64,000 nt of DNA, taken from contig JAJEKV010000017.1 of assembly GCA_021234155.1 (NCBI GenBank), positions 8,871,525 to 8,935,524 of the forward strand, given 5' to 3'. A program made the position numbers and the translations under genes. The DNA is from Isoetes taiwanensis (lineage: Eukaryota; Streptophyta; Lycopodiopsida; Isoetales; Isoetaceae). Under the pieces are notes generated by a model that did not search any database, was not told where the DNA came from, and saw only the letters and a list, made by a program, of their open reading frames with translations. Positions within the stretch are counted from its first letter, which is position 1. The number at the start of each line of letters is the position of its first letter. Of this stretch, positions 6,318-37,000 are shown one piece after another.

Positions 6318-6488
6318 TGATAACAGCAGCAACAAATTCAACTTTCATCATCATAAACCATCCATCAGTTTTGTTTCTTGAGTTTTTTGTCGTTAGATTT
6401 GGCTTTTGTTTATTATTCTCTCTGGTTTTCCTAATAGACATTCTGTTTCCTGTGTATCCTTCTGCGGGTCTCTGGTCCAAAACGAATA
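6318..6488 (+). repeat. 3' LTR of the second copia-like element (degraded copy)
   Basis: It begins TGATAACAGCAGC directly after a purine run (GGGGAGAGAGAAG) and ends CCAAAACGAATA. It matches the LTR at 35,045-35,221. Similarity continues past the LTR to about 6,868. Confidence 0.75.
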
Positions 6489-6868
6489 GAAAATTTCTGG
6501 TTGTCAGAAAATTTGACGACAGTCTGAGATAGGCCAACCATTTGTTAACTTTTACAAGCTATTAATGACAATGATTGGAAATGGGACTGTAGAGATCTTA
6601 TAGTTCTGCAAACAGGGTTGTAGGGGCTGTTTTAAGTGGAAGGAAGATTTGGAAGTAAGTAGTTGGAGATTTTCCTCTGTTTCTTCTGGGGATTATCTGA
6701 CAGGTCAGTTTTGGTCTATCCATGGATTATCCAGTTTTCTATGAGTATCGTCTTTTTGCCTTTGTGATTGCTGTCAGGCAATTTGATTTTCTCCAGTCCA
6801 GGTTGTTGGTTCTTGTCATTAACTGATCTGATTTACCAACATTCTTGAAGTTTTAGATGTTTGGTTGG

Positions 6869-9800
6869 TGCAATGGCCTCGCTGAAGTTATCTTAGTGCT
6901 CTCAAGTTGTCCGTGCGCCCATCGCCAGGTTCTAAGGCATAGATGTTTATGAAGTTAAGAGGTAGTAGGTATTCGTATCGCGTTGAGCTTTGTTTGGTGA
7001 AGAAATTGTTCGCCTCTTCTTTATGCTTTACCGCTGGAACCGACCCGATTGAATAAAGAACCGGTACCATCGGCAGGCGTATTGAATTTGAAGTGACTAC
7101 CGTAATGCGTTTGGGTTAATCAGCTCAAATGCGTAATATGTTATGAAGTAAATCAGCAAATTTTATAGAACATAACAATCCTCATAGCGCTCGAGCGAAG
7201 AAAAACTACGGCAGCCCGGTCGAGAAAGAACAAAACTGAAATAACCTAGCCGTTATTCGTCTAAAAAAAAACAATTACAACAAAGTAAAATATTTTATTT
7301 AAAATATAGCAGGAGCTTTATAAAAGTGATTGCCGAGTAAAAGGCTGGTAGTGGTGCAGAGATCAATAATTAACATCATCTTTCAATGTAATCTGTCCTC
7401 TGAATCAGGTGCCGTCATCAGCTTGAGAGGTCATTTTAGCCTCCGGCATTCCTGAATGGTGGGTCCTTGATCTCTATAGTTCTTTGTGTCCTTGGGTTTA
7501 AAGTTAAGAATATTTCAAAATTTAATATAATTGTTTAGTGGACTATATCTGCCGTCACATTAAACTCGCTTTCGTTTGTACCACTGTCTCTGTATGCTTC
7601 AAGACTCCATCTCCTCAGAGAATGAGAATGAGGAATGATTTTTTATGTGATCTGCAGGGCCGAAAATCGACCTAGGGGACCCAAGGAAAGCCCTTGACAA
7701 ACGCTGGCCTCCCCAGTGGGTTAAGAACCTGCCCAGGGTTTGAGAGGAAGATAGTCGAGAACTTCATTCCGGCAACATGTGACAGATGGAGTGCAGTCGT
7801 TATGAGATCTCTCTGAATTTAAAACACCTATCACAGACTTTGGTGAAATAAAGGCCAGAAGTCTGTCGTTACGTGATCCGAACGAGGTAGCGGTATGGCT
7901 TCATGCATTTTACTTCGTGAAAAAGCTGCCAGTTAAACTGGCAAAGAAATAATGTTATGCGATTCAACAAAATGTAAAGTAACTCGAAAATGGGATATCT
8001 TGTTGACTTGATGCAAATAAGATGCTGAGTCAGCTGATTAAACATATGTGGTGGTGACAATATAACTTTCTTATGTATTTACCCTTTAAAATTATGAATT
8101 CAAAAGCGCTCTGTCTTGCAAAAAAAAATCGCTAGTGATATTAATGTAGGTCATGAAACGTTATGCCTCATCTTCATTGTTCATTACATACTAATATTGT
8201 TTTCATCCAACCTTTCTTCAGTATGGATGCAAACTCAATGAGAACCGAAAACTCCAGCGAGAATAGTCTTGGGTTGCATAGATGTGGAAGAATGTAACCA
8301 TACTGCGCCGAAACGCCTCTACGCTTAATAGGGAATTAAAAGGCGGAACAAAGAGAGAGAGCTCAAATAAGGTTGGCTGGTAATCAGGAGAGAAAAGCGA
8401 GGACAAGCTACAGTGCGGCATCAGGAGTTTGTTAGAAGTTTGTTAACTATCATCAGGAGACAAACTCTCCCTGCATCGGAACATTGAAGATGTGTGGAAA
8501 GTAGTTGAATCTTGCACATATTTTGATTTTACAAATGATCAAACACTAGAGGAAATGGAGGTGTGGACAAGATTTCTGATTCAGCCTTAACCAACTCTTG
8601 GAGATGGCATTTTTTAGATGTCAAAAGAATTCTGATCTAACAGGCTCTCACAGGTGTGTGCTAATAAATTGATTTCTTAGATAAACAAAGAAATTGACTG
8701 GGGTGAATCATGGGTTCCGGAAGGAAATGAGAGTGCACTATGGGCTTAAATACCATAGATCAACATCTTTGGATATGGGAGATGCTTGTCTGTGGAGACG
8801 GTACCTAATATCGTCGTTTATGACAAGATGGATCCATAAACACAGTTTTACTTGGTTCAAGACTACCAAATTGACTTACCAGAGTCTTTCACCATTGAAG
8901 TATCACTAAGGACGGATTCACACCATCATGGCTTGAGGCCCGATTGCATCAGGTCATTTGGTCAGAATTAACAGGGGTTGTTCAGTCAACTATGGCATTA
9001 CCGAAAGCATTCAGGACAGGGCCTTGGTTTCCATCGAAAGATGCTAAAAACAACTTGTTACATCTCATTTCAAGGCATTTTAAGGTAACACTATTCTATA
9101 AGCTTCGAAGGATTTTAATACTGGGGATGATGACCGACTACAAGCAAATATAACTTATTGTTATCTTCAAAATATCAATAGATATACTTGTTACACATCT
9201 TGTGCAGTATCATTGTATGGGTTTGGAGTAGTTCGAAATGGTCTATGTTGAATGCGATGCAGGCACATAAAGGAACATTGATGCAATGTTTGGAGACAAG
9301 ATCAAGAGGAAAAGTTTGATCACTGCCTGTCAGGGGCTTTTTAGACTGTTAGCGATGTTGCTAAAACACCCCTCCTATTGGTTTATTAATGCACAGAAGA
9401 ATTTTGGCGGTTCATAAAGGTTACTGTACTCAGTAGAAGACCTTATTGGGCATAGTGTGCCATTACTAATTTAGGTTTTGGGTGAAGAATGAAGCTAATA
9501 TTTGCAATGCTGGGAGTTTGGAGATCTGTTGTGGGAAGCGGAATAAAAGATATAATGATTTGGAAGAAGGATATAGCCAGAGTGAACAAACAGGTAGGGC
9601 ATAATGAAACTGGGTTAGGAGAAGTGGGAAAAGGGCCCGTGAGCAGAGGACTATGAAAGGATATGGATTATACTCAGAAATCTTTGGGAAAGTCATGGCA
9701 GATAAACTTGACTTGGAAGAGGGCACTGTAAGATTCATTAGGGGTAAGTTACACACAGAGGATTTGGACTTTAAGAATGATGATCCTTGAGAGGGTTGAC

Positions 9801-15280: not shown

Positions 15281-15585
15281 CTATGTTGCAAGAATGCAAA
15301 CAATCATGTGTCCCACATATTTACTTAACCTGATGTGCTTGCCGGATTATATTGTAATCTTAAACCTGTGTAAACCCTGTAATCACACATTCGGGCGATT
15401 TCTAACCTGCTAACAGCTGTTCTTGGTGTACCTATCTGTTATCTACCCCTTCTGTGCCATCATCTCCCTCTAAAATATTTTAAACTAAGCTTTTTGTTTT
15501 GGACTCTTCCCAAGGAGCAGGTACAATACCACTCCAATTAAGACATCAAGCATAGAAATCGCATTAATTCCCAAAATTAATCGCT

Positions 15586-15761
15586 TTATTGGGACATACA
15601 AGCCAACAACTGTTCACAAAGACTACGCAGTTCAGGTGATGAATCTAAAATGAGATGCTGGACAACACTCTTTTTAACATCGATTAATTGTGTTGCAATA
15701 TCTTCAAGGATTTGCTCATTAGAAAGAAGCTGCCATTAACTTTGCTCCCCGCAATCCGTTC
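15586..15761 (-). CDS. HEAT-repeat gene, terminal exon with frame problem
   Basis: The acceptor TATGCAG leads to ERIAG in the expected frame. A run of four G then shifts the frame, KLMAAS follows in a second frame, and [20 protein letters not shown] continues in a third to [12 protein letters not shown] and a TAA. The exon is 176 nt, two bases off a multiple of three. Either there are two one-base errors in the sequence or the gene is damaged at its very end. Confidence 0.65.
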
Positions 15762-18700
15762 CTGCATAACAGCAAGGTTCAGCCTACGTAGTGAAGGGGC
15801 CTCATCATAATGGCAGTAACAATACGCTAAAGCGAAGCTATTGTCAGTATGACAAAGCAGACAAGGAACACCAGTGCTCTACATCACTTGAAGTAACTAA
15901 AATAACCCAGCCACTCCATCCTTATTTCTAACATGATACCAGATCCAAGGTTGACAAATCATGCAAAATGATGTAATCAGTCACTTGACCACTTAAATAA
16001 CTCACGAAATTGGAAGATGAATTAGGTTTAATGAGAAGATGGAAGATGAATTGGAAGATGCATAATTGGAAGATGAATTAGGTTTAATGAGACCTGTCTG
16101 GCACCAACAAATTGACCCATAAGATGATGTTAAGTATGGAATCTCTATACATGTCCACGTGTACAAACATGTGAGTGCCTATTTATTCTGTAACATATCA
16201 ATTATCGATTGAACCAGTTCGTCCCATTCCTCTCTCTCTTTGCATCTGGTATCAGAGCTACGGCTCTAGAGAGATGAATAGTTTAGCAGCATTGCATTAT
16301 TGGTTTAAAAGTCAGATCATAAAGATTTGTGAAGCAGGTAAAAGGCTTAGATCCTGGTTGAATTTGAGCATTTAAGGCTTGATTTCTTGCAAAATCTTTG
16401 CTAAACTTGGAGAAGCAGGAAGGATCTGTCCCGGTGTCAAGCGTTCTTGTTGTTTTATGGTCAAATTCAAGGGAGATTTTATACATCTTGAACAATCTTT
16501 GCAAAATAGGTTTAAATCTTGAGAACAAAGAAATAGATCTATAAGATCAAGTGCTGGTTCCTCAGGCTAAGGGTGTTTCTTGCATGTATTTGCAATATTA
16601 GCTTGATTGAAGGCAGATCTAGGAGGATTTATTATAACACTACTGCTAGGATGAAGAAATTTGGAGCAGAGAGTAGACCCGAATGGAGCATTCTTGCAGA
16701 AAGGGAAGAATCGATCGGAATCTACAGTCTTCAGAAATTCTCCTATGAGTGATTTTTATTAAACTCCTAGATCTGGCTGTAGAATTATCTGTAGCATGAA
16801 AGGATGCCAGATCTGCAGTCGGGACGTGTTTTTTGTTGATTCAATGGTCAGATCTGCAGTAGCGACAGATTAGTTGATAATCTATAGGCGGAAATAGCCC
16901 TTTAAACTTGTTGACGAATAAGCGGAAGCTATTTTTTGTTGTTTTCCAAAAACGTGCAGTGACGGAGCTATTATAGGTTTTCTTCAAAACCCGCTCAAAG
17001 GGAAAAGGGGTCCGTACATTTTTGGTTAACGTAGAAGGCACGGAAGAGGATTTCGAACCAACTGGAAGCAGGAAATTGGAAGGAATTGATTGGCGGTATT
17101 TGGTCTTAGAATTTGTCTGAAGGGCTAATCCGAAGGGCTGATTACTCAATGGGCAGCTTTCCTGTGGTGTTGATCAGAATTATTAGCAATTTGATGCTCT
17201 AACTGGAGTTGCATATAAATTTTATGGGAGTTACCTGGAGGTTTTTTGAGGAATTTATTTCCAGCATCCATCAAACTAAGTCCTCATATATATAAATTTT
17301 TTTTTTGAAGTCTTCGATATATGACCAGGTTATGGAGCAGGGGGCAGAGGTTTCATTCTGTTTTCCTCAAACTGATATATGTTAATCAGTATTCAGCAGC
17401 TTGGTCTTATTGGAACAATAATTTGGAGGATTTCAATGGCTACAAATGTAAGGATACAATTCGAATGTAGCATTGGAAACAAATCTGCTCTTGAAGATCC
17501 CTCTGTTTAATGGATTGCTATGTTCAAGTCAGCTTGTTCCAGAATTTAGGCTTTGTCAAGCAGTGGTAGAAAAAGTCAAATGAGGGTGCATCCCCATTAG
17601 CCAGCACCAGCAATTTCATGCAGTAATTTCAGGGTCCCAGTTATCAGTTTCTGAAGATCACCATTCCTATTGCACCTGAGATGACGTTTTAGCCAGTTCT
17701 GACAAAAAATAGGAAGACGACAAACGAAATCAGGAAGAGGACAAACGAAATCTTGCTAGAGGACAAATTCAGTTCTGATTTAGGGTATTCAGAAGCTTTC
17801 AAATCCATCTGAATTGGAGTTCCAGGCCTGTGCCATATCCGCAAAATCAAACTCCAGTAGCGAAATGGGAACGTTACTCCGGTGCCTGTAACTTGCAAGG
17901 TGTCACAGTTACCGGCCTGTTTTGAGCGTAATGAGGATGCACCCTGGGGCCTGTTGCCAGGAAAGCTTGGAGGCTTGTTGCTGGGAGAATCTTGCAATTG
18001 GCAGATTTGAGGCTTGTTGCCATGACCTTGCAGTTTGCTGGTCTGAGGCTTGTTGCCAAGGAGAGTTTAGCAGATTTGAGGCTTGTTGCCATGACCTTGC
18101 AGTTTGCTGGTTTGAGGCTTGTTGCTAAAGAAGAGTTTGCAGGTTTGCAAGTTTCAGGTTTGGCTTGTGCTATATTGGGCTCACAAAGTTGGTTGGAGTT
18201 ACACTGATTTTAATCTTGCAAACTCTAGTTCGTACAAATTCTTACAAAGGACAGGGAACAATATTCCTTGTGCACAAAACATGGTGTCCCAAACATATTC
18301 ATACCTCAAGGAGAGTTATTGGATTGCTGATGCACTGTCATATGATTTAGGCTGTTGTGTTTTTAGCTTGGGATTTGTTTGTTGTTAGCTGGCCATTGGT
18401 AGATGTAAATTTTTAGTTGCAGGTCAGCAATGGGATTAATCTTCAACCTTGATGGTTTCCAAAGCATTCCTTATCTACAGGTATTTGGTCTTGATGAAGA
18501 AAGTTTTGGAGCAGAATTTACTTGAAGATCTATGCCTACTGTAAGTTCAAGGATTTGAATTTATAGAATTTATTGGAATGCTTTGGCAGGCTTACAGCAA
18601 GAAAATTTCAGTTTGAGGGAAAGTTTTTCAAACTGAACTTTTCTTCCATTTTGAGGTTGAGGGAGAGCAGATTATGTACGTTGGTGGGTTCTTGCTTGAT

Positions 18701-21700
18701 AAGGGAAAAGGAAAGGCAAGGGGACTCCAGTGCTATGACATGTTAGTGCTATGAGTTGTTAGAATATCAAGGACCTCAATCTTCTTCTAGTTTGCAAAGT
18801 ATCAGCTGATCTTGGAGTTCCTTTTAGTTGCAGATGATCTTGATATTTGAATGAGATCGGTTTGATCCTAGAGTCTTATGCAGCCGGTTTCTTATAACCG
18901 GATGGTTGCTGCACATGATGGATGAGATATGGATGAGATTTTATCTCAGGGAGAGATTATTATCTCATGTAGATTTTATGGTGTGTTGAAAATGTGTACA
19001 GGTTTGGATTCTCACACATAAGAGTTTCAGGAAGAGTGTAGTATGGAATCTCTATGTGTAATATATGTATATATACTTGTACATATATCTGCATGTCTAT
19101 GCGTACAAATATGTGTACATGTGAGTGCCTATTTATTCTGTAACATATCAATTATCAATTGAACCAGTTCATCCCATTCCTCTTTCTCTTTGCATTTCTC
19201 ATCGATCTTTCACGTTATCAAATGACGAGCAGGAATATGGCCGTAGAAACATTTTGGTACTAAAATCAAAATACAATAAATCAAGATAACTCAAGGCAAC
19301 TGGAGTATATGGTGGTATTTGTTCCTTTCTTCCTTTCCAAGAACTGCTTAAGGTTCTGTTGAGCTTTCAATCTTATCCTTTTAGGGGCGTTCAAGTAATG
19401 CCGCTAGAGCCACTTTGCTGCCTGTTTTACTCTTTAGGAGCCCTCAAGAAAATTTCTAGAGCCACTTTGTCCCCAGGTGGAGGTAGGTCAGATTCCTTCT
19501 TGTTGCTCTTCTCATCCCCAAAGACAGCTTTAATTTGCATATTACCAATTCTCAAATTGATTACAACAGTAAAATTTCAGATTGTGCCCCCAAATAAGAA
19601 CTCTTTCCCATTGTGCATAAAAGATGAGGTTTGAAGTGCATGAAGTGTACATACCTCAGGACAGCCTTTTTCTTTGATGTGACTTAAAGACAGCATAAGT
19701 AAATCATTTGCATATGGTACAAGAGCACGATCTTTGAAATGATAAACCAGGTTAAAAAATATGTTGAGAATAGCTGTCCGTATACAAGAAATGATCTCAT
19801 TCTGTAATACATAAAACAAGAGCAGATGAATATCAAAGCTTGATTTAGACTTGAAACTAGAAACATACTATACCATACCATACCATACCTGAAGATGATT
19901 TAGGAGGTGTGGTACAATGAAATGTATAAAATGACAATAAGAAATGACTGGAAGTTTTGAACAAGTGCTGATTAGGACGTTTGCCATACACAACCGGAAT
20001 GCAAGAATGCTTTGCTCAGGACCACTGTCCCTTATATGTACGTTTTCTGATATTACACTGGAGGAAGAGAAAAGGCTTAACGGCATTGCATGAGCATCAG
20101 ACAATAGGCAGCTCATTACAGCATTCAAAACCTTATGTTCTGTCCTGTCGCCAAGGCCTATAGATAAACCAAAAAGAAATTATCAGCAGCTCAAAATATG
20201 TCAGAAATTTGCATATGAATAAGCACCTATATATTTTTTTGAGCCATGTTTGTCCATTGCAAGTTCAGTACGGATCATTATTGCAAAGCAATCTATGCAA
20301 CCATGCTGAGCCTTCTGTATGTTAACAAAGTCTACAAAAAAAAGGGTTCATGCAGCTAAATATAGTACTAAATATGACAGATGAGAACCAACAGCAAGAA
20401 AAACCTTCATGAGGAACAGGCCACATCAGTATAGATGCTAATAATGCTTGGATCAGCATCATCTTAGGATTTTGAAAGCTTTGGCTCTCCCAAATCTGTA
20501 AGATATTAGCAAAATTAAACGAATTACAAAATTTTGCAGGATGTTTGACATACCATCAGTGAGTTGCATATGGCAAAGATGTATGCTTTTACTCTTGGCG
20601 CATCCATTGCCTTTGTTGCTTCTTCAAGTCGAAATGCTAACATAGGCAGTATGACCTGAATAGTTGTGAACATACCATTTAGATACCAAAATTGCTTATA
20701 TGTGCACTGATATAACAATAATGCTGGCAGCATTTAGCTGATTACAAGTAGCTTATGTAGAGAAAACCTCGTATAATCTAAATGGAGATGAGAAGCTATA
20801 GGAAGATGGAAGGCAGTAAGCTGCCAAAGACTAAATGATACATTGAGCACCTTGGTGATAATGGGAATTACTTCATTTTGCATGAGGTGGAACCGTCCTA
20901 CAGTCGTTTACAATTGGTAGTTAATGCTTTAACATAACTACATCGCATATGGATGTTTATATGCTAATATGCTCCACAAAGTGAAGTTTAATCGGCTTGA
21001 AATTTGATGCAAATTTGGCCAATCATCAGCTACTTTTGTCTTTGAGTTACAGTATCACAAATTTAACTGTTCCAGGCTTTATCTGCTCACGGACAAAACA
21101 AACTTTAATATCCAAATAATCGCTATTTGGATGTCATTCATCTTGGACTCTTTAAAAGCTGTTGTCAGTGACAGAAATAATTCTTAATGGTTAAGCACAC
21201 ATATGTGCTGACATGGCAGCCTATGTATTTACATAGGACCATGGTTTATAGTTTAGCATGTATTTAAGTTCATGTATGCCCCCTAGGTTAGGTGTCAACG
21301 TGCTATGCTCTACACGTCACATATGTGACCATCTTCTGTAGCACCGAGAAAAACAACAATCCAATCCATCATATTCCTTTTTCTGAGTTTCACTCCGTCT
21401 CTTTTCTCTCTTGTTTTCTTGCTGTTTGATTCTAGCCTAGATCACAAGTTTTGTCAGTCAGAATAAAGTCATTCTGCAGGCATATCCTGTAGCCTTGAGT
21501 AACTAAATTGACTATGATATTTCCTGATTGGCACTAAACAGTACATTTCGTCTTCTAGTCTGCTTTTCCAGTGCTCAAGTAACCATTCAATTCCTCCATG
21601 GAAACAGACCCCCGAGGTCCAAACGAAATCTGCTATCCACTCATGCTTTGCTAAGCGGAAGAGGGAAAAGCAGATATCAAAAAAGTCCCAGTGAGCTGCA

Positions 21701-24700
21701 TAATAGGCGACCACCTTGCGCAAAAGATGTTCTTCATTCTTTGTACCATGTGATAAGAAGACTCCTTGCTTAGTGTCAATGGTGCTTTTCACTTGCTTCT
21801 GCAGACATTAACAAAATCTTTCTTGCTCTGACCATTGCCCATCTGCAAGTGGTGAACTGCACTGCCAAACCTATAACCAGCTGGCATACGTCCTTTACAA
21901 AGACACGGACAGAATCCCAAGTTAAAGAAAGGGACTTGCAAATATTCCAGCTTAAGGGAGAACCGAGCAACCTCAGCACATTAAGTAGATCTTGGATATG
22001 CAAAACGTGCTTATGTCAATGAGTTGGTGACAGGACACATTTAGCCTGACTTGGACTAAACATTGTGGACCAAAAAATTGTTAACAGTACTTATATAGAG
22101 GGACGTATCCTTTTGTCTTTCATATATTGCACTCTCTCTCTTCTCCCATTTGCAACTAGGCATACTTATACATAAGATGCATCAACTAGGAAACTATAGG
22201 CTCGACAAAGAATGTCTGGCATAAAAAAGAATGTTGCTATGCATAACTTGGATACACACAAATTTGCTTATAATAAATGATGAGACTAGTCAGCAATCAA
22301 AAATTCTATTCAAGAACAGAAATTTAGAACAATGTAGGGATGGACTCGTGGAATAGAAGTTGATTTGGCTTTAAAAACGCCCTTACGCTTAGGTGCAATT
22401 TAACAGGATCATTTCCTCAATATTAATGAAGACGGCTTTCTTCAAACCCCAAGATTTTAACATCCATTTATTATCAAAGAGGCCAAGCAGCTGATGTTGA
22501 TCACTCTTTGCGAACTCTGTCATTTGGCTGAAATCAAGTACGAAGTCCATTTTGTCTTCAATTTCAAATCAGAGATAAAAGGAGCAGGATGCCTGATGAG
22601 AATTTGTCAGGTTCAATTAAGAAATCTAGGTAACCCACTAAGCCACAAGAGAGCAGAGACTTTATCCCCTCAGGGTTGACTTTCAGATAGAAATCGATAT
22701 CGTCAACCGAAAGAAATGCAAACAAAGAACTGCTCAGCTATAGATCTCTAGTAAGCAGTAATAGGTTCAGATCCATGCCACGACAATTTTGCTTGCTCAT
22801 AGAAGATCCTATCCTCATCAAAAAGCAAAAGACTGAAATTGCAATGTACAAAAGCTGTATTAGGGTGAACTCACACTTGTGGCCGCCCATGATCCTAAAT
22901 TCTAATCCTTTTTGGATTCCTGGGCGCCCCCTCTATCACACTTGGGGTGCCCAGGATGCAATTCCCTTGGGGCTTCCCTATGGGAAATATCCCACTTTTT
23001 CAATACAGTAAAATGGATGATAATCTGAATTTTACTCAGCAAGAAGTTAATCAGCTTATACACCATGACTTGGAGTGTCTTTATGTTTCAAATACATGGG
23101 TAAATCCATCAAAGATCTCCCTGCTAAAAACAAATTCTATAAGGATAACTTCCTAAATATATCAGCAGATGGTTTCATCGTATGGCTGCCGAATAAAGTG
23201 AGATACTCTATGGGGCAGTTTAGAGTGTCATCTCACCAGTTGGAGATTGAGGTTGATAGGGCGAAAAATTTTAGTTGTGAAGATCGGAAATGCCCAATGT
23301 GTGATCTAAACATGGTTGAGTCATAAGAACATTTTATTTTTACCTGCCCAACCTACTAGACCATTAGAGGCAGATGTCATTGTCTTTTTAGAGACCCCAA
23401 ATCTCTTAGACAGCTGGTAGAATATTACGATCAGAAATGTGTATCTTACATTGTATATGAACTATCCCTAGAAAGGAGAAATATTCTCAAATAAAAAATC
23501 CAATGAGTCTGAAGCAAACAGAAATAACTAATTTCTTTTCATCTGAGTCAAATGATGATAAGATGATAGTGGAGTCATCACAAAAGAGGAAGTAGCGTGA
23601 CCCTAAAGGGGTGACTTTGGCACTGTCTAAGAAGATAAAACGATCAGGAGTCATGCAACATAAAAGGTCTTTCCAGAAGAGGCCGAGCATCAAGCATCAA
23701 AGCAAGTCAAGAAAGGGTATTATGAATTACTTTGCAGCAGTCACAGGAACGAATGGGCTATCCCCATCAAATTTTCCTCCTGAAGGTCTTGAATTCTGTA
23801 TGTGTTATGGTCTCACAGACCCTTCGGGTCTTACGTAGACATTAACAAATCTTTCTTTCCTTCTTTCTTTCGTTCTTGCTGTCTTTAAGTGCACATGTAG
23901 TTTGCTAAACAAACCCTCTGGCCGGAACCTCATTCTCAACTCCTATTCTCTAAATTCCGAATGTTCTGATAACATGCATGAAGCAATATTGATATGTGGT
24001 TGTCAATGTGTAATGGATAACTACAATAATTAGGATGACGTCATGCCCCTTCAATTGAGGTACGTATATGTTAATGTCAATGTGTAATGGATAACTACAA
24101 TTGTTAGGGTGAAGCCATGCCCCTTCAATTGAGATACCTATATGCTAACAGTAATGACAGCGTTCGGATAAATCCCTTACATCTGGCAAGAGCCTGCCAC
24201 ATAACTCAGCAGAGAGTTTACGGACATCCTCATACTCAGTGTTCCCAGACATTCTGAAAAGAACGGGATAAAATAACAATGGTGAAATTGCTGATACAGC
24301 AAACCAGATAACATATAACTAGATGTTTTACCTGTCTATTAGAAGCATTGCTATATTGGTGCAGGATATGGCCCCAGAAGTTGCATCAACTGCAAGTGCC
24401 TCTAGGTAAGTGTCAACAACTTACATATTAAGAAGGCGACCTTTCTGGTAAATGTTAAAGAAAGCTTACCAGAAGTTAGATCGTTCTTAATGCCCCCATA
24501 AAGTTCCTTGCTATCGATATTTTGGAAAGCTTCAAGATTAAGAACCTTTAGAACCAGCAACGGGCTCAACCATTGAAAAATTCTACTCCCATCATCATCA
24601 TTGTCTTCCCCCTGCTTCTTTTCTTCTAATGACCTGAAATTACACGTAAACAAGATATTAAGTATTTCCTGCCATGGAATGAAGGAAAACATAAAGAACT

Positions 24701-27700
24701 TTGGATTGCCTAGTTCCTTGAAGAAATGTACTGTATTTCTGGATAAGATTGTATGCATAAATGATTCCCTCAAAGATATTAAGCCTGATTGACTGACTTC
24801 CTTTCCTCCAAAAAGGAAACTATCAGCCAACTGCGTAGGTAACCTGCAACCTAATGACATAATGAAGCTTCATTATGCTAGTGACTTCCGATTTTATTTT
24901 ATAATGTCAAACTTCAAGCCTTCTCTCAGAAGGACTATTGAACTATCATTTTGTATTTCAGGATACCCTCATTCCGCAAACCCCAATGCAGAAACGTGAG
25001 GAAATTGAAGGGAACTGTAAAAACACACTTACTTTGTCTGTACCATCATCAACTCAAGGATACGAGGAAGAAGTAAATCTGGCCTCTTCGAAATGTATCT
25101 GCTAATTCTACTCAGGAACATTGGAAGCAGAGGATTTTCAGGTTCAGCAAACATCTTATCCAGGAGGAAGCTGATAATAGGGCCCCAATCAGTTACCTGT
25201 ACCAGCAAATTATAAAACTTTGGCAGAAGGATTTGCAAAATTGAAATGGCAAATTTAACACATTCTTAGCCCCACCAAGCACATGCACATTTTACATTTC
25301 CTTAACCAAAAAAAAACTTTAAAGCACTGACTGTGGTTGCCCAGCTTGGCATTAAATTCATTATCCGTTCGGGATCTGCATTGGCAAACAGACAAACTTT
25401 AATTTCGTATGACTATGTTAGGTTGGAAGCATAAGACCCATGTTCAAGTATCGACATAATACCAGATTTTCGAACCTTAGATTCTCCAATATATCCTGGA
25501 TGTACTGGAACCTCCGTGATTTCTGATAAATTCCTGATGTGACAAGCAGATTGGTTAGAAACCTAGGACAACGTGATGTTGGAGGTTGGTAAGGGTGAAC
25601 TCGCCCAGCGCTGGGCGAGTTCTGTAGTGCGTAGATATGATATGAGGATGTAAAATAAACTACATTATGTTAAGAGAAAGTAATGGATAAAAATCTGCAA
25701 GACCATCCTCTCTGCTGACTGTACATAGTCTGACATGTCAGTCACACTTCTCATCTGATACCTGACAGCTCAACAAATGTCTGGAAAGATATCGTTACAC
25801 GCGAGAATTAGTGTTCATTTTCTCCTGCATGTCATCTTGTTTGGTCACCATTTTTGAGTAGGACTGACCTAATCTGATTTCTTATCTTTGACAGAAATAA
25901 TTCTTAATGGTTAAGCACACATATGTGCTGACATGGCAGCCTATGTATTTACATAGGACCATGGTCTATAGTTTAGCATATATTTATGTTCATGTATGCC
26001 CCCTAGGTTAGGTGTCAACGTGCTATGCTCTACACGTCACATATGTGACCATCTTCTGTAGCACCGAGAAAAGCAACAATCCAATCCATCATATTCCTTT
26101 TTTCTGAGTTTCACTCCGTCTCTTTTCTCTCTTGTTTTCTTGCTGTTTGATTCTAGCCTAGATCACAAGTTTTGTCATGGTATCAGAGCCCAGGGTGGCT
26201 AGAACCAACCAGTGAGGGAAATTTGTCAGAGGTGAATTCAGAAGTTGGCAACACTGCCGAAATTGGACGTCTTCAACCAGAATTGCAAAATCGGCCAATT
26301 TTTTGTCACGTCATCAACAAATTGTGTACTTTTGTTCAAATTCGAGATTTGGTTGCACAAAGGTGCCGTTTTTTGCCGTTTTGTGCCGTTTTTGTTCAGA
26401 AAGGTTGAACAATTGGTAATTTTGGCTCTAGGAGCAATTTCGTGAGAGATTTGTCAGGATTGAGCAATGTTGATGCAGTTTCTGTGACATACCATCTGTC
26501 TGGGTAAATCCCTTGGTTTGTCTTCTTTGTGCATCTAAAGCTCAGTAATCTCTCTCTTAGTGCTCTTTGATAAGTTTTAATACCTTCAGGGATGGATTCC
26601 ACCAAATTCAACAATCCAAATGCTATCCTGAAAGGAGATAATTATTTTCAGTGGATTGATGTGTTTGAAGGTTATCTCCTCATGCATTGTTTGGATGGAC
26701 TTGTTGATGGCTCTCTTGACATAAAAGATGCAGATTTCTCGTCAAAAAATAAGAAAGGCTTGGGCCTCTTGAAAGTTCTTGTATCACCAGAAGTTCAGTG
26801 CCATATCAGGGGTTGTAAATTATTGTCTGAAGCACTAGATCAGCTGAAAAGGGTGTACGCTCGAGATACAGATTCTAGAGCCTTTTTCTTGAGAGACGAA
26901 GTTACACTCTTTTGGCGCTTGGACAATTGTAAAGATATGCTTGATTATATTTCCAAGGCCAAAGAGATTAAAAGCAAATTGGATGATATGAAACAGCAAG
27001 TACCAGATGGTGAGGTAATTTCCGCGATTGCTTCGTGGTCTTTCTATAGATTATCAGCCTTTTATTCTTGCATTAGGTGCAAGAGACAGCCCAATTAAGC
27101 TGAAAGACTTGCCTAATCTTCTCCTTCAGACTGAATTGGAGTTGAAAAGGCGGTCAGATCAGAATGCTTTCTTTTCCAAACATAATCCCAAGAAGCACAA
27201 TGATAGGTTCTCTCGAAATAAATCCTCTGAGTCTTCAGGTAGTAATTCTAATCGAGGGAGCGGAAGCAAGAAAGGTTCAAGCAGATATCCATGCAGATAT
27301 TGCCACGAGAAAGGGCATTGGATTAGTGATTGCCCAAAGCGTTTAAAGAAAGAAGCCAAAGCTGCTGCAGCAAGTAAAGATCAGCCCGCTCATGCTAAAA
27401 ATCAGCCCGCACATGATCGTAAGGAGCGATCTAATTTCGTAGCTGCTGAATTTGAACCAGAAAGTGCTGATATTGAATGCTTATTCAAAGCTTCTGAGAT
27501 GTCTTTGGACAGATCTGGTAGTGATCCGTGGTACCTTGATTCCGGTGCCACTTCGCACATGACAGGAAAAAGAAAGTATTTTTCTAAACTACAACAAGTG
27601 GATGGTGGTCGAGTTAAATTTGCTGATAATTTCAGCTATCAGATTCAAGGGAAGGGCGACGTCACATTTTCTACTCAGGAAAGCGGCATAAAGTATGTTA

Positions 27701-30700
27701 AAGATGTTATTTACATTCCTGGACTTGAAGAAAATTTGTTGTCCGTTTCCAAGGTTGATAACAACTGCTTGTATGCTATATTTGGACAAGGAGAAGCTAT
27801 ACTTACTCCTACGCGCCCTGCTATTCCCGACTCTGATATTGTTGCTCGCGGCATTCTCCAAAATGGTTTGTACAAATTTTGCGCTTCTGTTGTAGAGCAG
27901 AAAGGTTTGCTTGCTGCTGCTGCTATTAGCATGTCTTCGGATGAGCTATGGCATGCTCGGTATGGTCATTTGAGTTGTCAATCTCTTTGTATGATGCATG
28001 GAAAAGAGATGGTTGTTGGGCTGCCTGCTGTACATACTCATAAACTGCAATGCGATGCTTGCAATCTTGGAAAGCAAGTAGCTGCATCTTTCCCCAAGGA
28101 GGCCGTGAAGAAAACCAATGATATCTTCCAGCTCGTGCATAGTGATGTATGCGAAGTCAGGGTCCCTTCTTTGAGTGGAGCACGCTACTTTTGTACATTC
28201 ATTGATGATCATTCTAGGATGACGTGGGTGTACCCTTTGCATTACAAATCTGATGTACTCTCTAAGTTCAAGGAGTTCCGGATTATGGTTGAAAAACAAA
28301 CAGGAAAGTTGATTAAGGCATTCAGGTCCGACAATGGTGGTGAGTACAAAAACCATTCTTTTGATGCCTATCTTCGAGATTCGGCATTGTTCGCGCGAAG
28401 TTGAGTGCTCCATATTGTTCGCCACAAACGGTGTAGCTGAACGCAAGAATCTCGCTCTTATGAATTTGGCAAGAAGCATGCTTGCTTATAAACGCTTGCC
28501 ACTGTCATTTTGGGGTGAAGCAGTTAAAACAGCAGCCTATCTTTTGAATAGAGCTCCCACAAAAATTGTGAAAGGGCAAACACCTTTCGAGGTGTTCTAT
28601 GGTACAAAACCTGATGTCTCGCGATTTGAAAATCTTTGGCTGTCCTGCTTTTGTGCATCCGCATTCAAAATTGAAGAAACTTGATGATCGGGCAGTCAAA
28701 TGCATTTTATTGGGTATGCTGATGGATATAAAGCTTACAAATTCTATAACCCAGCCACTAAGAAGCTTGTGATCAGTCCTGATGCCAAATTCTTGGAGGA
28801 TGGCTACTATGATGCTTTCGAGCCTGATGTTGGTGCGCCCTTTGATATTCATTCTTTGCTTGATTTGGACACTCAGCAGAATGCAAGTAATGCTGCTCCA
28901 GTTGCTGCTGTACCGACCAGCGTTTGTGATCATAGTGATGATGACGAAAATGATCCTTATCTTGCTGCCTTGTCTGATATTCATGCTGCCAATCAGCCTG
29001 CTAGTAGTTCTAGGACTGCTTCAGCCCCGCCTCCTGCTGCAAATCATGATGATGGTGTGCCTCTTAGGCGATCTGAGCGCTTAAGGCCTTATCTGATGCA
29101 CAACCAAGTGTTACGCACACTTGTAATTATGCTTTGATGGCAAAGATCTATGAAGATCATCGCCTTCTAGTTTTGCTGAAGCTCTTACCAATCCAGATTG
29201 GGTGGCTGCGATGCAACATGAATATGACCTGCTCATTAAGAATGAGACTTGGGATCTCGTTCCCTTCCTAAAGGGAAGAAAGCGATTGGATCAAAATGGA
29301 TCTTTAAAGACAAATACAATGCAGATGGCTCTCTCAGTAAGCATAAGGCCAGACTTGTTGCCAAAGGATTCGCTCAGCAGCATGGCATTGATTATGATGA
29401 AGTCTTTGCTCCAGTTGCAAGAATGTCAACCGTCTTGGCGCTATTTTTGCCTTAGCAGCTAGTAAAGGATGGCCCGTTATATCAAATGGACTTCCAAAGT
29501 GCCTTTTGAATGGAGACCTGTCCGATGAAGTTTATATGCAGCAGCCAGAAGGTTTTGTCTCGAAGGGCAAGGGCACTTGGTTTGTAAATTGAAGAAGAGT
29601 CTCTCTGGCCTTAAACAAGCACCTCGGTGCTGGTACCATAAGATAGATTCTTATCTTAAAGCACATGGCTATTCTTTTCCACAGCAGATCCCAATTTATA
29701 CTTTAAAACTAAAGGTACATCTCTGCATTGTTGTGTTGTAACGTTGATGATTTGCTGCTTACAGGAGATGCCCATGATCTTATTGATCAATTGCGCACTT
29801 TCGCTTATACATGAATTTGCTATGACAGACTTAGGTCTGTCCCATTACTTTTTCTTGGGATTGAAATTTGGCAAACTCACGATGGCATCACTTTGTCTCA
29901 AGGTAAGTACGTCCAAGATCTTCTTACAAAATTTCACATGACAGATTGCAAGGTTGCCAAACAGCCCATGGAGCCTGGTTTGAAGTTATCCAACTCTGAT
30001 GAGTCTCCTCAGGTAGATGCTACTTTGTATCGTTCACTTGTTGGTGGACTAATTTACCTTACAGTCACCAAACCAGAGATCTCTTTTGCGGTGGGCATGT
30101 TGAGCCGTTTTATGGCCTGTCCAAAACAGAGCCATTGGCAAGCAGCGAAAAGAGTGCTCGCTTATTTAAAAGGTACTCTTAATGAGGGCCTCTGCTATAT
30201 GCGTGATCCGTCGCCTGCTTTGCATGGTTTTGTAGATGCTGATCATTCTGGTTGTCTTGATACGCGACGCAGCACCACAGGTTATGTGTTTGGCCTTGGT
30301 AAGAACATCATTACTTGGCTCAGCAAGCGTCAGCCCTCAGTCTCTCTTTCTAGCACGGAGGCGGAGTATAAAGCCTTAGCGATTGCCGCTGCTGAAGCCG
30401 TTTGGTTAGCCAAACTTTTTGCAGAATTAGGCTTTGACACCAGCACTATTCCACTCTTTTGTGACAACCAAAGCTCTTTGCAACTTGCTAATAATCATGT
30501 GTTTCATGCGCGCAGCAAACACATTGAAACACATTATCATTTTGTGCGAGAGAAGGTCCTTGATGGTCAGCTTGATCTTCATCACGTTCCAACCACAGAT
30601 CAATTGGCTGACCTCTTCACCAAGCCATTAGCAGGGTCTACATTTCAGAAATTCAAGACTCAGCTTGGTATTCGAATGCTCAGCTTAGGGGAGGATTACC

Positions 30701-33700
30701 ACGATAAGCTGTAGCATTCTTCTTTTGTTCTCGTCTTCTTTTGTTCTCAGTTCATATATGTGCTTAGGGGAGGATGACAGAAATAATTCTTAATGGTTAA
30801 GCACACATATGTGCTGACATGGCAGCCTATGTATTTACATAGGACCATGGTCTATAGTTTAGCATATATTTATGTTCATGTATGCCCCCTAGGTTAGGTG
30901 TCAACGTGCTATGCTCTACACGTCACATATGTGACCATCTTCTGTAGCACCGAGAAAAGCAACAATCCAATCCATCATATTCCTTTTTTCTGAGTTTCAC
31001 TCCGTCTCTTTTCTCTCTTGTTTTCTTGCTGTTTGATTCTAGCCTAGATCACAAGTTTTGTCAATCTTCTTTCTAGCTATTCAAGTTCACTTTCATAGCA
31101 TTACTATCATGGTATCAGGGCCTCTTTGATGCAGAAAATGTTAGAATAAGGGAAACATATGAAACATCTCAGAGCCTCCTTGAGGCAGAAAGACTTGGTG
31201 AAACATATGACACGTGTCATCTTAGTAGAGACAGGCTGCATGCTAGGAGTTTTTGTACGTCAGATTTCGTTTTTGTCTATTCTCTCCGGTTTTGCTAATA
31301 GACAGTTCCGTTTCCCTACTGCTTATCTCTTCTCTGAGTCTGGTCCAAAACGAATATGGTATCAGAGCCAGCTCAAGGAGAGCAAGCCAGGAACTTACTT
31401 AGAAGGGGAGAACATCCAAGATCATCAGCCTTTATATAGAATGGAGTTTTTTGTTTGAAAGCGGCAGTACTTGAGCAATGGGCAGCTTTTGGGCCAGTTT
31501 TCATCTGACATTAGGGTTGGATAAAATCCGTGGACGTTTGTCTAGTCCCTTTTTTAGTCCTGAAAAAATGCTGTTTTACTATGGCACACCAATTTCTGGT
31601 GGAAATCCTTGAGGCAACTGAAGACAGGGAGAGAATCCTTCCAGAAATTGAAAGTTTGGTGCTGATATTTGACAGCAGTTTACTTGGGAATTTTGAGTAG
31701 TAAGAAAGGTACTTTGAGATTGATCCATTTAAATTCTCCAATAAGTCATGGAAAAGCTTTATCACAAACTATTTGGCTTATAATAAGATGGGAGCAGTGT
31801 TAGAAACAGATTTCAGACGTACCAAAGATTCGAAATCTGCCAAGCTAAATTCATCAGCCTTAGCCAAATCTGAAAGCCTACAAGTTAGAATCTGAAAGCC
31901 TTAGCCAAAGATCGCCAGTTTCAGCCTTAGCCAAATTCATCAGCCATGCATGTGCAGTTGGAAAGCAACCAAATCTGCCATGCAACTCATAGAGCAGAAA
32001 ACCATTGGAGTTGTTACACAGCAATTTGTGTCATATGCAATTCTCTTCTTTGGCTGGAAAAAGGTATAGCAGATATACATGGGTCTATGCCTTGCAATGC
32101 AAAGTCTGAAGTACTAGAAAAACTTAAAACTTTCAAAAATTATTAAAAATCAGACTGGCCTGAAAATCAAAGACTTGAGAAGCAATAATGGCAGAGAGTA
32201 CGTATCCAATGAATTCAATGAGTATTTGATGGAGCAGAGCATTCAAAGAGAGTTGATAGCACCGTATGCTCATGCACAAAATGGTGTGGCCGAGAGGAAA
32301 AATAGATCCCTAATGGATCTTACTCGGTCAATGCTTGCACATGCTAGATTACCAAACAGTTTTTAGGGAGAAGCCATTGTGACGGCCTGCTATTCGGCAC
32401 CTAGAAAAACAGCGTAAGGTATGACGCCATTTGAGGCTTTCTATGGAGAAAAACCCAATGTCAAAAATTTGAGAGCGTTTGGCTGTATGGGCTATGCCTC
32501 TTTGCCACTTGAAAAGTAAAGAAATAGCGGAAGTTAAATGACAGGGCAGTTAAAACCATTTTCATAGGCTATCCTTCTGAGGAAAAGCAGATTATGATCC
32601 GGTCAAGAAAGCACTTTTCATCATCAGAAGCGTAAACTTTATTGAGGACGCCATCTACGATGCTTCAATATGGGCTGATTTACCTGCTGATCAGTTTCAT
32701 GCATATTCTTTGCTCGGAGAACTCATTGCTGCCGCAAAATTTTTTGAAGGTGGTTCTTCTCTTGCAATTTCTACGCCGTCATCTCTTTTTGTCGAGATGG
32801 CTGGCAGTACAGCTCCATTGGATGAGCAAACCAAGTATTTGACACCTCAATTTGCTGCCAGGAAAGAATTTCATTGCAATAATAAAATGCACGATGTTGC
32901 TTCTGTTGCTGAATGTAATTTGGCTTCAATCACCAAAGTAATGGATCATTATGATCCCGTATCCTTTCAAGAAGCTGCCATAGAACCAAAATGGCAAAAC
33001 GGCGTGGCTGAGGTGTATGACATGCTCATCAAGCAAAATACATGGGAACTTGTTGATCGTCCACCTCATAAGAATGCTATTGGAAATAAGTGGGTCTTTC
33101 ACACTAACTTTCATGCCGATGGCTCGGTTTCCAAGTGCAAAGCTTGCATGGTAGCCAAAGGTTATTCTCAAAGAGGAGGCATAGATTATGAGGAAGTTTT
33201 TGCCCCGGTGGCTCGCATGGATACTGTTCGAGCTGTAATACGTTTACAGCAGCAAAGGGATGGCCTTTCAAATCGGCTTTTTTGGAACAGTGACCTGCAG
33301 GAAGAAGTTTACATGCTGCAGCCTTTGGGATTCCAGGTTAAAGGGAATGAGCACATGGTATGTAAGCTACGGTCTTAAGCAAATGCCTCGGTCTTGGCAT
33401 TCTAGAGCAAACAATTTTTTCTTGGAAAATGAATATTGAAGAAGTAAAGTGGGTCCTAAACTCTATGCTAAGTTTTCAGGTCAAGAAATATCCATTGTGA
33501 TCTTATACCCTGATGATTTAATAGTGCATTAGTCCGAGATCAGTCATGTGAAATTTAGCGACAAGATTGATCTTTAACTCTGATATAAGATCTTTTGCTT
33601 TTCCCGTGATGTATTCTCTAAGCATTGAAGTGTGGAAAGCAAAGTAATGGTGTTTTTCTTTCGCAACAAAGGTACGTCAGGGAATTATTGCAGAAATCTG

Positions 33701-33936
33701 ACCAGAGTAATCTGACATACAAAAACTCTTAGCATGCTGTGTGTCTCTATTAACATGAAACATGTCATATGTTTCACTTACTCACACTTCCTCTGAAACA
33801 AATGACTCGTCAAACACAGATATCAAAAGAAAACAAACTGATTGGAGGTGCTGGCGGAGTCATCGAAGTAACATCCGCAGTAACGTCTGCCGATCCCTAG
33901 TCGGGCATTGTTTAAGGTTGAGACTAGGATGGTATT

Positions 33937-34005
<69 letters not shown>

Positions 34006-37000
34006 AGTTCGTCTTTCATAAATTCAAGAATTTCACCTCTGACAATGAAATACAAATGCCCCCAACTATCCCTATTAATCATTACTTCGGTCATTACTTC
34101 GGTCCCAAAGACCAACGGAAAAGGACTGGGGCCCTATCACGTTATTCCATGCTAACATATTCAGATCATAGGCCTGCTTTGAGCACTCTAATTTTTTCAA
34201 AGTAACAGCATCGGCTCGGCATCCCAGCCAATTAAGGCCAGGACAACGTCGCCAACTAGAAAGGGGTGGACTGTCCATCCCACCCCGAGATCCAACTACG
34301 AGCTTTTTAACTGTAGCAACTTAAATATATGCTATTGGAGCTGGAATTACCGCGGCTGCTGGCACCAGACTTGCCCTCCAATGGATCCTCATTGAGAGAT
34401 TTAGATTGTACTCATTCCAGTTACCAGACTTGTAGAAGCCCAGTATTGTTATTTATTGTCACTACCTCCCAATATCAAGATTGGGTAATTTGCGCGCCTG
34501 CTGCCTTCCTTGGATGTTGTAGCCGTCTCTACTCAAGCTCCCTCTCCAGGATCGAACCCTAATTCCTGCCGAGCTGCTCAGGGAAGGCTAGTTTTTGGGT
34601 TCATATATGTGACTCCACTTAATCACATCGAACTCTAATTCCCTGTCCTACAAGACATCCAATAAAATTGGAAAGATTAGCATGGCCCCTACCCAAGGAT
34701 GACACGCATAAGTCGAACCCCAATCTTTGTCACCCGTCACTGTCACCATCCTACCATCGAAAGTTGATAGGGCAAAAATTTGATTGAATATCGCCGGCGC
34801 TAAGACCGTGCGATTCGACTAGTTATCATGAGTCGCTACGTGAGCAGGCAAGCCTGCATATGACTACTGGCAGGATCAACCAGGTAGCTTCCATAAAGGG
34901 ACAATGAAGAAAGCTGAACCTTATGCTGCTACTGTTATCACTTCTCTCCCTAAAGCTGAAACTTCTTCATCCCCAAAGCTAAGTAATTTGTAAGGTTTAA
35001 GGAAGCTTTGGGGATGAAGCTTCAGTTTAAGGGGGAGAGAGAAGTGATAACAGCAGCAGCAAATTCAGCTTTCATCATCATACAAAAACCATCCATCAGT
35101 TTGTTTTCTTGAGTTTTTGTACGTTAGATTTCGCTTTTGTTTATTCTCTCTGGTTTTCCTAATAGACAATTCTGTTTTCCTATGTGCTTATCCCTTCTCT
35201 GAGTCTGGTCCAAAACGAATAGAAAGAAGTGCAAGTTTGTCCAGAAAATTTGACGACTTGATCTGAGATAGGCCAACCATTTGTTAGCTTTTTTACAAGC
35301 TATTAATGACAATGATTGGAAATGGGACTGTAGAGATCTTATAGTTCTTGCAAACAGGGTTGTAAAGGGGCTGTTTTAAGTGGAAGGAAGATTTGAAGTA
35401 AGTAGTTGGAGATTACCTCATTTCTTCTGGGGATTATCTGACAGGTCAGTTTTGGTCTATCAATGAATTATCAGGTTACTCTGCACTGAGTATCGTCTTT
35501 ACCTTTGTGATTGCTGTCAGATAATTTGATTTTCTCAGTCAGGTTGTTGGTTCTTGTCATTAACTGATCTGATTTACCAACATTCTTGAAGTTTTTTAAC
35601 AGATGTTTGGTTTGACTCTAGGACTTTCCCAATTCTATGGTTGATCCTGATTCCTGGAAAAATCCGATTCTTGACGGTATCCCTGGACATGTATGTTAGA
35701 CTTACATGCTGACATGTCGCATTGCTGACCCAGCACACTGCAAGCTTGTTGCTGACATGGCATTCTTATGCAAGCCATAGTCACACCTATCTGTAGTTAG
35801 TGATTTTTCCTGGAGTTTGTGGTTTCTGTTAGATGCTCATACTCTGTGTCTTTATTCCATCATGAATACATTGCAATGTCTACATGGTATCGGAGCAAGG
35901 CATGGCTAGGAGTTAGCATCTGATTTGTCTAGACAGAACATTTTGAGGATTGAGTGTCTTGTTGCGGAAAATTTACAACCTAAAACGGATTTGGATTGAG
36001 AAAGTGCCTTTTTCTGGTAATCTTCAAGATTGTGCGCTGGATCGGTCTAATCTTGATGTTATCCAGTTAGTCACCAGTCTGGTTATGCTGTGGAAAAGCT
36101 TTGGAAAGCTTTCTTTACACGAATAGCATACATTTTTTCAGATTGATCGAAATTTGAACATCTAGCATTTCATTTGGTATCGAATTTTTGTGGCTTTGCA
36201 TCTGGTGATTGGACCTCATGCTCAAACTTGGACCGTAAACAGTCCCTAGTTCTTTAGAGCTAAGAAAATCTGGTAATGCCCAGGAATGCACTTCTGGATA
36301 AACACAAAACTGGATATAATAAAAAAAACATCGTCATCTCCAAGACAAAAAAAATTGTCAGTGTTTCCTATGCATCATTATCTTGAAGAAACTGTGTCAT
36401 ATGCACATTCCATTGTGAATAATTGTCACGAGACAAAATTTCAAATCCAGAACTAGCTGTCAGCTTTTCATAGCGTCAGTTTTCTCTGAAATTTTCACAA
36501 ACCCCTCCTTGCAAAACTGTCCAAGATTTGCTCAAAAAATAGAGCTAAGCTAAGATCCAAAGTTTGGAGATCAAAGATTTTCAAAAATAGATTGAAAATG
36601 ACAAGCCTTAGCTGTAATCACAAAGATCTTGTCTTTAAGAACCCTTCAGAGAATGTTCTTGGAAGAAAACAACAAGAATACTGTTTAAATCGAGCAAAAT
36701 TCTCCTGAAAACCTTGAAGAAGTTAAAGTTGAAGAGTTCTCAGGAATTGCCCATATTCTGAGCAAAAAACAAAGAAAATTCCGTGAATCTCAGCCAATGA
36801 TCTCCCAAATTCTACCAAAGAGAATCAAGCTTCGTCTGGTCCAGCCATAATGCAAGATCGTGCAGCAGAGCTAATAAATTTTCCAATCAATAGATCCAAT
36901 GACCAGATCTTCCTCAATCTTGGCCAATCCCGACCAATTTCTGCAATAGGATCTCCTTTCAATTGCACCCATTAGCAATCATGGGCCATGAATCTCAGAA

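What the first reader, a model, noticed from the sequence alone, without database searches (positions are those of the whole stretch)
33845..34886. Copia-like element carries 18S rRNA and U6 snRNA sequence
Between the broken reverse transcriptase of a copia element and its 3' LTR lie antisense 18S rRNA, a plus-strand U6 fragment and a second antisense 18S piece ending exactly at the mature rRNA 5' end. U6 chimeras are known from LINE template switching. A copia cDNA that joined both rRNA and U6 would be unusual, and I know of no described example. The structure exists in two places in the window (also 5,190-6,179), so it is not a single read chimera unless the duplication itself is false.
Basis: partly seen in the sequence, partly recalled or inferred. 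Interest (0 to 1): 0.9.

Follow-up and report, generated by a model that had tools for sequence, protein, structure and literature searches.

The report
U6 inside LINE-targeted quillwort 18S rDNA
A piece of ribosomal RNA gene that already carried a retroelement end and a U6 snRNA copy at a preferred insertion point has ended up inside a copia retroelement's LTR in a plant genome (probably a quillwort); the second copy in the window looks like an assembly artefact, and the more interesting thing is the preferred insertion point in the 18S gene.

Summary
The observation largely holds: antisense 18S (513 bits) with a plus-strand U6 piece (47.5 bits) lies inside copia sequence at 33845-34903. Three details change. 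(1) The second copy (5190-6179) belongs to a false tandem duplication: identity between the two 27-kb blocks runs 72% -> 100% -> 81-88%, and the left copy's differences are mostly private to it. A separate contig (C338) carries the same structure, lacks the neighbouring young copia and has its own 6.3-kb insertion, so the chimera is real. (2) The piece runs 17 nt past the mature 18S 5' end into the ETS, and sits inside the U3 of an inverted copia LTR. (3) Copia did not join U6 to 18S. Six or seven other rDNA copies without this copia carry inserts at the same 18S position (nt ~379), antisense, with a 13-nt target repeat; one locus (C996) has nearly intact U6 there. The junction of insert 3' end and target occurs 123 times in the genome, control 0. 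Best reading: an 18S-targeting, LINE-like element of (probably) Isoetes taiwanensis put U6 into 18S by target-primed reverse transcription; a later event, mechanism open, moved that rDNA piece into a copia LTR. The LINE assignment itself is weakly supported.

The parts
31198..31355 (+). partial 5' LTR of the host copia ('copia-2'), followed by a primer-binding-site-like stretch 31356-31374
   Evidence: 31247-31356 matches 3' LTR 35111-35221 at 90%; PBS motif located (label recalled)
32118..33707 (+). copia-2 integrase fragment (32118-32363) and broken reverse transcriptase (32581-33375, then a degenerate tail)
   Evidence: Pfam rve 3.1e-4 (below cut-off), RVT_2 7.7e-25; tail read by eye
33709..33847 (-). 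inverted LTR piece: U3 resumes beyond the rDNA piece
   Evidence: parts align to the 5' and 3' LTRs and to the rDNA-free relative L046
33845..34566 (-). 18S nt 1080-365 (antisense on + strand)
34551..34566 (-). target copy A (ATCGAACCCTAATTCC)
34567..34626 (+). 60-nt insert, taken as a short 3' end of the 18S-targeting element
   Evidence: 34587-34644 matches the L023 insert at 81.7% over 60 columns; aligned 3' ends
34627..34642 (-). target copy B (ATCGAACTCTAATTCC)
34645..34716 (+). U6 snRNA copy from nt 1, with internal losses (5 and 11 nt against the Rfam model), ending where U6 TCGA overlaps the target
   Evidence: Rfam RF00026 47.5 bits; 78.6% to U6 gene L038 over 84 columns
34712..34725 (-). 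target copy C (GTCGAACCCCAATC), then 18S resumes
   Evidence: AAATCGAACCCC in C338
34744..34859 (-). 18S nt 339-223
34856..34903 (-). 18S nt 31-1 (to 34886) and 17 nt of 5' ETS (34887-34903)
   Evidence: 100% to L018; 31 of 57 rows
34904..34980 (-). inverted U3 start (37 nt, 34904-34940), PPT and pre-PPT
   Evidence: inverted repeat 34904-35078, 73.5%; aligns to L046
35026..35221 (+). PPT and 3' LTR of copia-2 (LTR about 35045-35221)
   Evidence: relative L046
25889..31063 (+). neighbouring young copia ('copia-1'), LTRs 289 bp 100% identical, 5-bp target duplication ATCTT; absent at C338
1..6866 (+). right end of the falsely duplicated block (it begins about 20 kb left of the window)

Best explanation
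Three steps. Step 1 (site, orientation and repeats shown; LINE nature inferred): in this genome a LINE-like retroelement inserts at one point of 18S rDNA (sense strand ...AATTAGGGTTCGA^, nt ~379), antisense to 18S, duplicating at least 13 bp; inserts stack because each duplication recreates the target. Step 2 (structure shown, mechanism inferred): its machinery sometimes used U6 RNA as template; the nicked strand end ...TTCGA can pair with a UCGA of U6, so the U6 copies begin at U6 nt 1 and end at that UCGA. Step 3 (structure shown, mechanism open): one such interrupted rDNA piece (5' ETS -17 to 18S nt ~1080) ended up in the U3 of an inverted copia LTR, in place of about 13 bp, by ectopic break repair or by template switching of copia reverse transcriptase, before the C985 and C338 copies diverged; no further copy of the composite was found.
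For: Site and inserts: in 9 sequences (L013, L023, L035, L042, L043, L044, L045, window, C338; 7 or 8 loci) inserts lie at the same 18S point and their 3' ends are followed by TCGAACCCTAATT or a near copy; none of the seven outside C985/C338 matches the window's copia, only its 18S, insert and U6 letters. Of 9 loci read with both flanks of the site, 5 have inserts (L023, L035, L043, L044, window) and 4 do not (L012, L016, L017, L018) (not a random sample). Genome count of 3'-end/target junction: 123 at up to 3 mismatches, 0 in the reversed control. U6 in 18S without this copia: L035, 83 of 84 nt identical to U6 genes, between target copies, and its near-copy L042. Exact U6/target junction at 2 places, 10 at up to 3 mismatches, control 0. 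The 18S-U6-18S stretch of the window and its right junction were found only at C985 (right copy and false duplicate) and C338 (each scored 40 of 110 and 40 of 116 candidates). LTR placement. False duplication.
Against: The LINE nature rests on one 3.5-kb insert (L013, read on one side) whose frames look LINE-like from recalled motifs only; Pfam and two protein searches found nothing. U6/TCGAACCCTAAT joins also exist outside 18S: L040 (20 nt of U6 behind an A-rich stretch) and L041, where only the target motif matches 18S; 4 of the 10 places were not read. Many of the 123 junctions have other letters after TCGAACCCTA (AAGT, ATA, AGGT) in clusters I did not read, so specificity is probably not absolute. 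Insert 3' ends differ (CTACCAC, CTCCAA, GAATAA), so more than one element may be involved. Whether the window's and C996's U6 are one event is undecided. The search with the left copia/18S junction did not complete.
Confidence: 0.7

Rival explanations
1. Copia reverse transcriptase joined copia RNA, 18S rRNA and U6 RNA by template switching in one cDNA.
For: The rDNA piece is in the same sense as the LTR it interrupts, and U3 leaves and resumes only about 13 nt apart, as a jump out and back would give.
Against: U6 is in 18S at the same point without this copia; an insert 3' end and target copies sit inside the piece. A copia switch explains at most the capture of an already chimeric pre-rRNA.
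Confidence: 0.05
2. Step 3 by template switching: copia RT captured a pre-rRNA from an rDNA unit already interrupted by an insert and U6.
For: Same sense as the LTR, ETS included, near-returning jump; inverted U3/PPT copy beside it.
Against: Little or no microhomology at the two ends (judged by eye: about 0 nt at the ETS end, 2-3 nt at the other); 18S nt 32-222 missing; no amplified copies found.
Confidence: 0.3
3. Step 3 by break repair: a double-strand break in an inverted copia LTR was filled with an ectopic rDNA piece.
For: Small deletion at the site and joins with little homology, a genome with 18S pieces on many contigs, only one composite found.
Against: Does not by itself explain the same-sense placement or the inverted LTR/PPT.
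Confidence: 0.5
4. Whole structure is an assembly artefact.
For: The left copy is one; the assembly this seems to be is nanopore-based with gap filling (PMC8566536, passages).
Against: C338 has the same joins but differs by a missing copia, an extra 6.3-kb insertion and about 3-10% of letters.
Confidence: 0.05

Closest known systems
U6/LINE-1 chimeric insertions and U6 retropseudogenes of mammals (PMC13174262, passages; PMC4476161, listing only)
   Same: U6 RNA used as template by LINE machinery; 5' end of U6 kept; target duplications
   Different: here the target is one 18S point, U6 ends at an internal UCGA that the target shares, and the host is a plant; the machinery is not proven to be a LINE
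R8 of Hydra, which inserts into 18S rDNA (PMC3636483, passage), and R1/R2 (recalled)
   Same: recurrent insertion at one rDNA position
   Different: R8 is an R2-group animal element; here inserts are antisense to 18S, in a plant, and the clade is not established
Cassandra, Helenus, Ajax: LTR elements with 5S or tRNA sequence in their LTRs (PMC10886601, passages)
   Same: structural-RNA sequence lies inside an LTR
   Different: those are amplified families with the sequence in both LTRs; here one composite, 18S sequence, one inverted LTR piece
Utopia, Keno and Dada-U6 (PMC4640811, passages)
   Same: target-specific elements tied to RNA genes
   Different: there snRNA genes are the target; here U6 is the cargo and 18S the target

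Membership tests
rDNA-specific non-LTR retrotransposon (R-element type) | recurrent insertion at one rDNA nucleotide | tested here: met
   9 sequences, 7 or 8 loci, with inserts at the same point; 123 junctions vs 0 control
rDNA-specific non-LTR retrotransposon (R-element type) | target-site duplication | tested here: met
   L035: 18S 38-380 | insert | 367-705; target motif on both sides in L023, L035, L044, window; L013 and L045 read on one side only
rDNA-specific non-LTR retrotransposon (R-element type) | conserved 3' end, variable 5' truncation | tested here: inconclusive
   a common ...GACTCCACCTACCAC-type end with inserts from 60 nt to 3.5 kb, but at least two other ends also occur
rDNA-specific non-LTR retrotransposon (R-element type) | encodes reverse transcriptase and endonuclease | tested here: inconclusive
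   L013 frames resemble a LINE ORF2 tail only by recalled motif; Pfam and protein searches negative; search for longer copies not answered
rDNA-specific non-LTR retrotransposon (R-element type) | confined to rDNA | tested here: not met
   L040 carries the element's 3' region in 4 kb without 18S beyond the target motif; junctions with other target letters (not read)
copia LTR retrotransposon (host element) | PBS, integrase, RVT_2, PPT, LTR | tested here: met
   RVT_2; integrase below cut-off; PBS, PPT and LTR by motif and by relative L046
Cassandra-like LTR element with structural RNA in LTR | RNA-derived sequence in both LTRs and amplified copies | tested here: not met
   3' LTR lacks rDNA; composite found only at C985/C338
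processed U6 retropseudogene | U6 copy between target duplications | tested here: met
   L035 and window U6 between target copies

The most novel reading that the evidence does not exclude
Isoetes taiwanensis carries a LINE that has become specific for one site in 18S rDNA, which would be the first such element in a vascular plant that I know of, and its nick end pairs with UCGA of U6, so U6 is repeatedly written into 18S genes at that site; rDNA pieces carrying this cargo then reach other elements such as copia LTRs.
Probability: 0.43. Interest if true: 0.72.

Novelty: new variant of a known kind. Interest (0 to 1): 0.55.

Why it matters
A site-specific retroelement in plant 18S rDNA would extend to lycophytes a phenomenon that I know mainly from animals (recalled), and a fixed target with a defined primer end makes template choice (why U6?) directly testable. 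The false duplication is a caution for reading duplicated features in this assembly.

Tried and rejected
Rejected: (a) a real tandem duplication of the copia-18S-U6 block: the identity profile and one-sided differences contradict it. (b) The palindrome at 34904-35078 as a normal feature of this copia family: one relative, L046, has PPT-LTR without it; two further relatives (C952, C1034:17480318) were not read. (c) My early idea that copia-1 is followed by a tandem copy: C338 shows the empty site at 31064. (d) A U6 promoter carried along: the match to U6 gene L039 starts 8 nt before its U6, but those window letters are target copy B; nothing further upstream matched.

Led nowhere: the plasmid search found one 1764-base record labelled Acinetobacter that looks like stray 18S (inference); Pfam and protein searches for the L013 frames; paper searches with 0 papers for LTR + 18S + U6 + template switching + chimeric, Isoetes taiwanensis + 45S and lycophyte 18S insertions; the listings (20 of 61; 8 of 25) showed no plant 18S-specific LINE by title or abstract start. 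That is not proof of absence: most subscription papers are not held.

Not done: the queries with the left copia/18S junction (window 33480-33890) and with the L013 coding region did not complete, so neither was tested genome-wide.

Mended on checking: copia absence at the other rDNA copies was tested only; the LTR gap is 13 nt by alignment, not 16-20; the clusters with other target letters were not read; confidence lowered from 0.72 to 0.70 and the novel case from 0.45 to 0.43, because insert 3' ends are of more than one type.

Full report
WHAT THE WINDOW IS. The window is G000:C985:8871525-8935524 of an assembly of 1,658,258,908 bases in 1110 contigs. The published Isoetes taiwanensis assembly has 1658.30 Mb, from nanopore reads with miniasm, racon and pilon, Bionano scaffolding and LR_Gapcloser (PMC8566536, passages read). 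The species is inferred from this size; no tool named it.

THE OBSERVATION. Rfam finds 18S on the minus strand (513.2 bits) and U6 on the plus strand at 34645-34728 (47.5 bits, gathering score 44). In coordinates of an intact 18S of this genome (L018) the aligned pieces are: 17 nt of 5' ETS and 18S nt 1-31; nt 223-339; nt 365-1080; nt 32-222 are missing, and an insert with target copies lies between the last two pieces. So the piece does not stop at the mature 5' end. In one search, 31 of 57 listed rows match from 34856 or 34857 and stop at 34900-34905, which puts the ETS boundary at about 34903 (40 of 116 candidates scored).

THE SECOND COPY IS FALSE. The left block (window -19981 to 6866) and the right block (8497 to 35612) are collinear. 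In 1-kb steps their identity is 72% at the left end, 95-100% between about -16000 and -6000 (one step 92%), and 81-88% over the last 11 kb. With C338 as third sequence, counted in alignment columns, the left copy has 321 private differences, the right copy 19 and C338 63 in 31064-32570; 228, 32 and 151 in 33400-34740; 156, 7 and 66 in 34760-35612; 178, 10 and 83 in 24676-25888; and, in the well-matched middle (21457-22644), 18, 2 and 116. Two old sister copies would share the load about equally. This is what two noisy contig ends joined without merging would look like (inference). The copy at 5190-6179 is therefore most likely a poor second reading of the same locus.

SEPARATE SUPPORT. Contig C338 (134 kb) is collinear with the right block and beyond, at 90-97% over window 18569-49635 and 87% at 15299-17619. 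It has the same copia/18S, 18S/U6, U6/18S and 18S/ETS/LTR joins. It lacks copia-1 (empty site, target ATCTT) and has its own insertion of about 6.3 kb inside the 18S piece. Whether C338 is the other haplotype or a paralogue was not tested. Its U6 lies below Rfam's gathering score.

WHERE THE PIECE SITS. Reading the minus strand: pre-PPT, PPT, LTR U3 nt 1-37, then ETS-18S-insert-18S, then U3 again from the ATCAGTTTGTTTTCTT region to ...GTCAGATT, with about 13 nt of U3 missing. A relative at C1034 (L046) has PPT and LTR in order, with neither rDNA nor palindrome, so the empty state exists. The rDNA therefore interrupts an inverted LTR piece that lies between the copia RT (plus strand, ending about 33707) and the plus-strand PPT and 3' LTR.

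THE 18S INSERTION SITE. Inside the piece, the 18S target occurs three times (34551, 34627, 34712; the second and third with changes), with a 60-nt insert and U6 between. The same point is occupied in other rDNA copies: L023 (C929, stacked inserts), L035 and L042 (C996), L043 (C1007), L044 and L045 (C964), L013 (C1089). None of these seven matches the window's copia; only 18S, insert and U6 letters match. L035 and L042 are 95% alike and about 25 kb apart and may be one locus read twice. Of 9 loci with both flanks read, 5 have inserts (L023, L035, L043, L044, window) and 4 none (L012, L016, L017, L018); L013, L042 and L045 show one flank in what was read. In L035 18S runs 38-380 before and 367-705 after the insert, a duplication of about 14 nt. 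Most insert 3' ends resemble ...TGACTCCACCTACCAC; ends CTCCAA (L023, L043) and GAATAA (L035, L045) also occur, so more than one element may be present. The pattern CTCCACCTACCACATCGAACCCTAATT has 123 matches at up to 3 mismatches (65 + 58), 0 in the control; many listed places lie on contigs that also carry 18S (C964, C1089, C1007, C1048, C91). Clusters with other letters at the target end (C907; C1089 at 7.5 Mb; C1048 at 1.3-1.5 Mb) were not read.

U6. In L035 U6 begins at nt 1 and ends ...CGCATAAATCGA, 83 of 84 nt identical to U6 genes L038/L039, with target copies on both sides. In the window the same ends are found with decay and internal losses. The join U6/target has 2 exact and 10 total matches at up to 3 mismatches, control 0. 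Of the 10 places, 6 were read: C985, C338, two at C996, and two outside 18S: L040 (20 nt of U6 after an A-rich stretch, followed by the element's 3' region) and L041 (U6-like, 86.7%). The four letters UCGA shared by U6 and the nick end would explain why the U6 end is constant (inference).

MECHANISM. Shown: place, orientation, target repeats, shared 3' ends, U6 ends, absence of this copia at C996. Inferred: target-primed reverse transcription by a LINE. The coding evidence is weak: L013 frames 5470-6372 and 6697-7374 resemble a LINE ORF2 tail by recalled motif, while Pfam and protein searches were negative. A different sequence beside 18S in L012, where 18S stops at nt 170, has an RVT_1 fragment (E 1.7e-6, 28.3 bits against a cut-off of 29.6), but it is not at this site. 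Open: how the rDNA piece entered the copia LTR; break repair and copia template switching both fit.

KNOWN OR NEW. U6, 5S and 28S chimeras of LINE-1 are known in mammals (PMC13174262, passages). 18S-targeting is known for R8 of Hydra (PMC3636483, passage). Structural RNA in LTRs is known for Cassandra, Helenus and Ajax (PMC10886601, passages). My paper searches showed no 18S-specific LINE of a plant and no 18S/U6 piece in an LTR in what they listed; the library lacks most subscription papers.

VERDICT. Real, rare, and largely explained: one old event placed a U6-bearing rDNA piece in a copia LTR. The more general finding is a hot insertion point in the 18S rDNA of this plant.

Noticed in passing
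window 25889-31063: A young copia with two 289-bp LTRs 100% identical and target duplication ATCTT, but with its reading frame split over several ORFs; absent from C338.
   Followed up: partly
window 6867-8497: Stretch between the two falsely duplicated blocks; the part at 7000-8000 matched nothing in the right block; possibly a misjoin or gap fill.
   Followed up: no
L040 (C941) 1960-2342: A-rich, mRNA-like stretch joined to 20 nt of U6, then the 18S target motif and the element's 3' region, outside 18S.
   Followed up: partly
L012 (C1028) 5619-6320: An 18S copy that stops at nt 170 and is followed by sequence with RVT_1 fragments on the strand antisense to 18S.
   Followed up: partly
C907:16335876-16462122, C1089:7529702-7590014, C1048:1340290-1486055: Clusters of the element's 3' end with target letters AAGT, ATA or AGGT after TCGAACCCT(A): perhaps other tandem targets.
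   Followed up: no
one search list (40 of 371 candidates scored): Most 18S matches in this genome are 78-91% like the window's piece and lie on many contigs, which suggests scattered, degenerate rDNA or noisy assembly of rDNA.
   Followed up: no
L035 and L042 (C996, about 25 kb apart): 18S-U6 copies 95% alike, possibly another false duplication.
   Followed up: no
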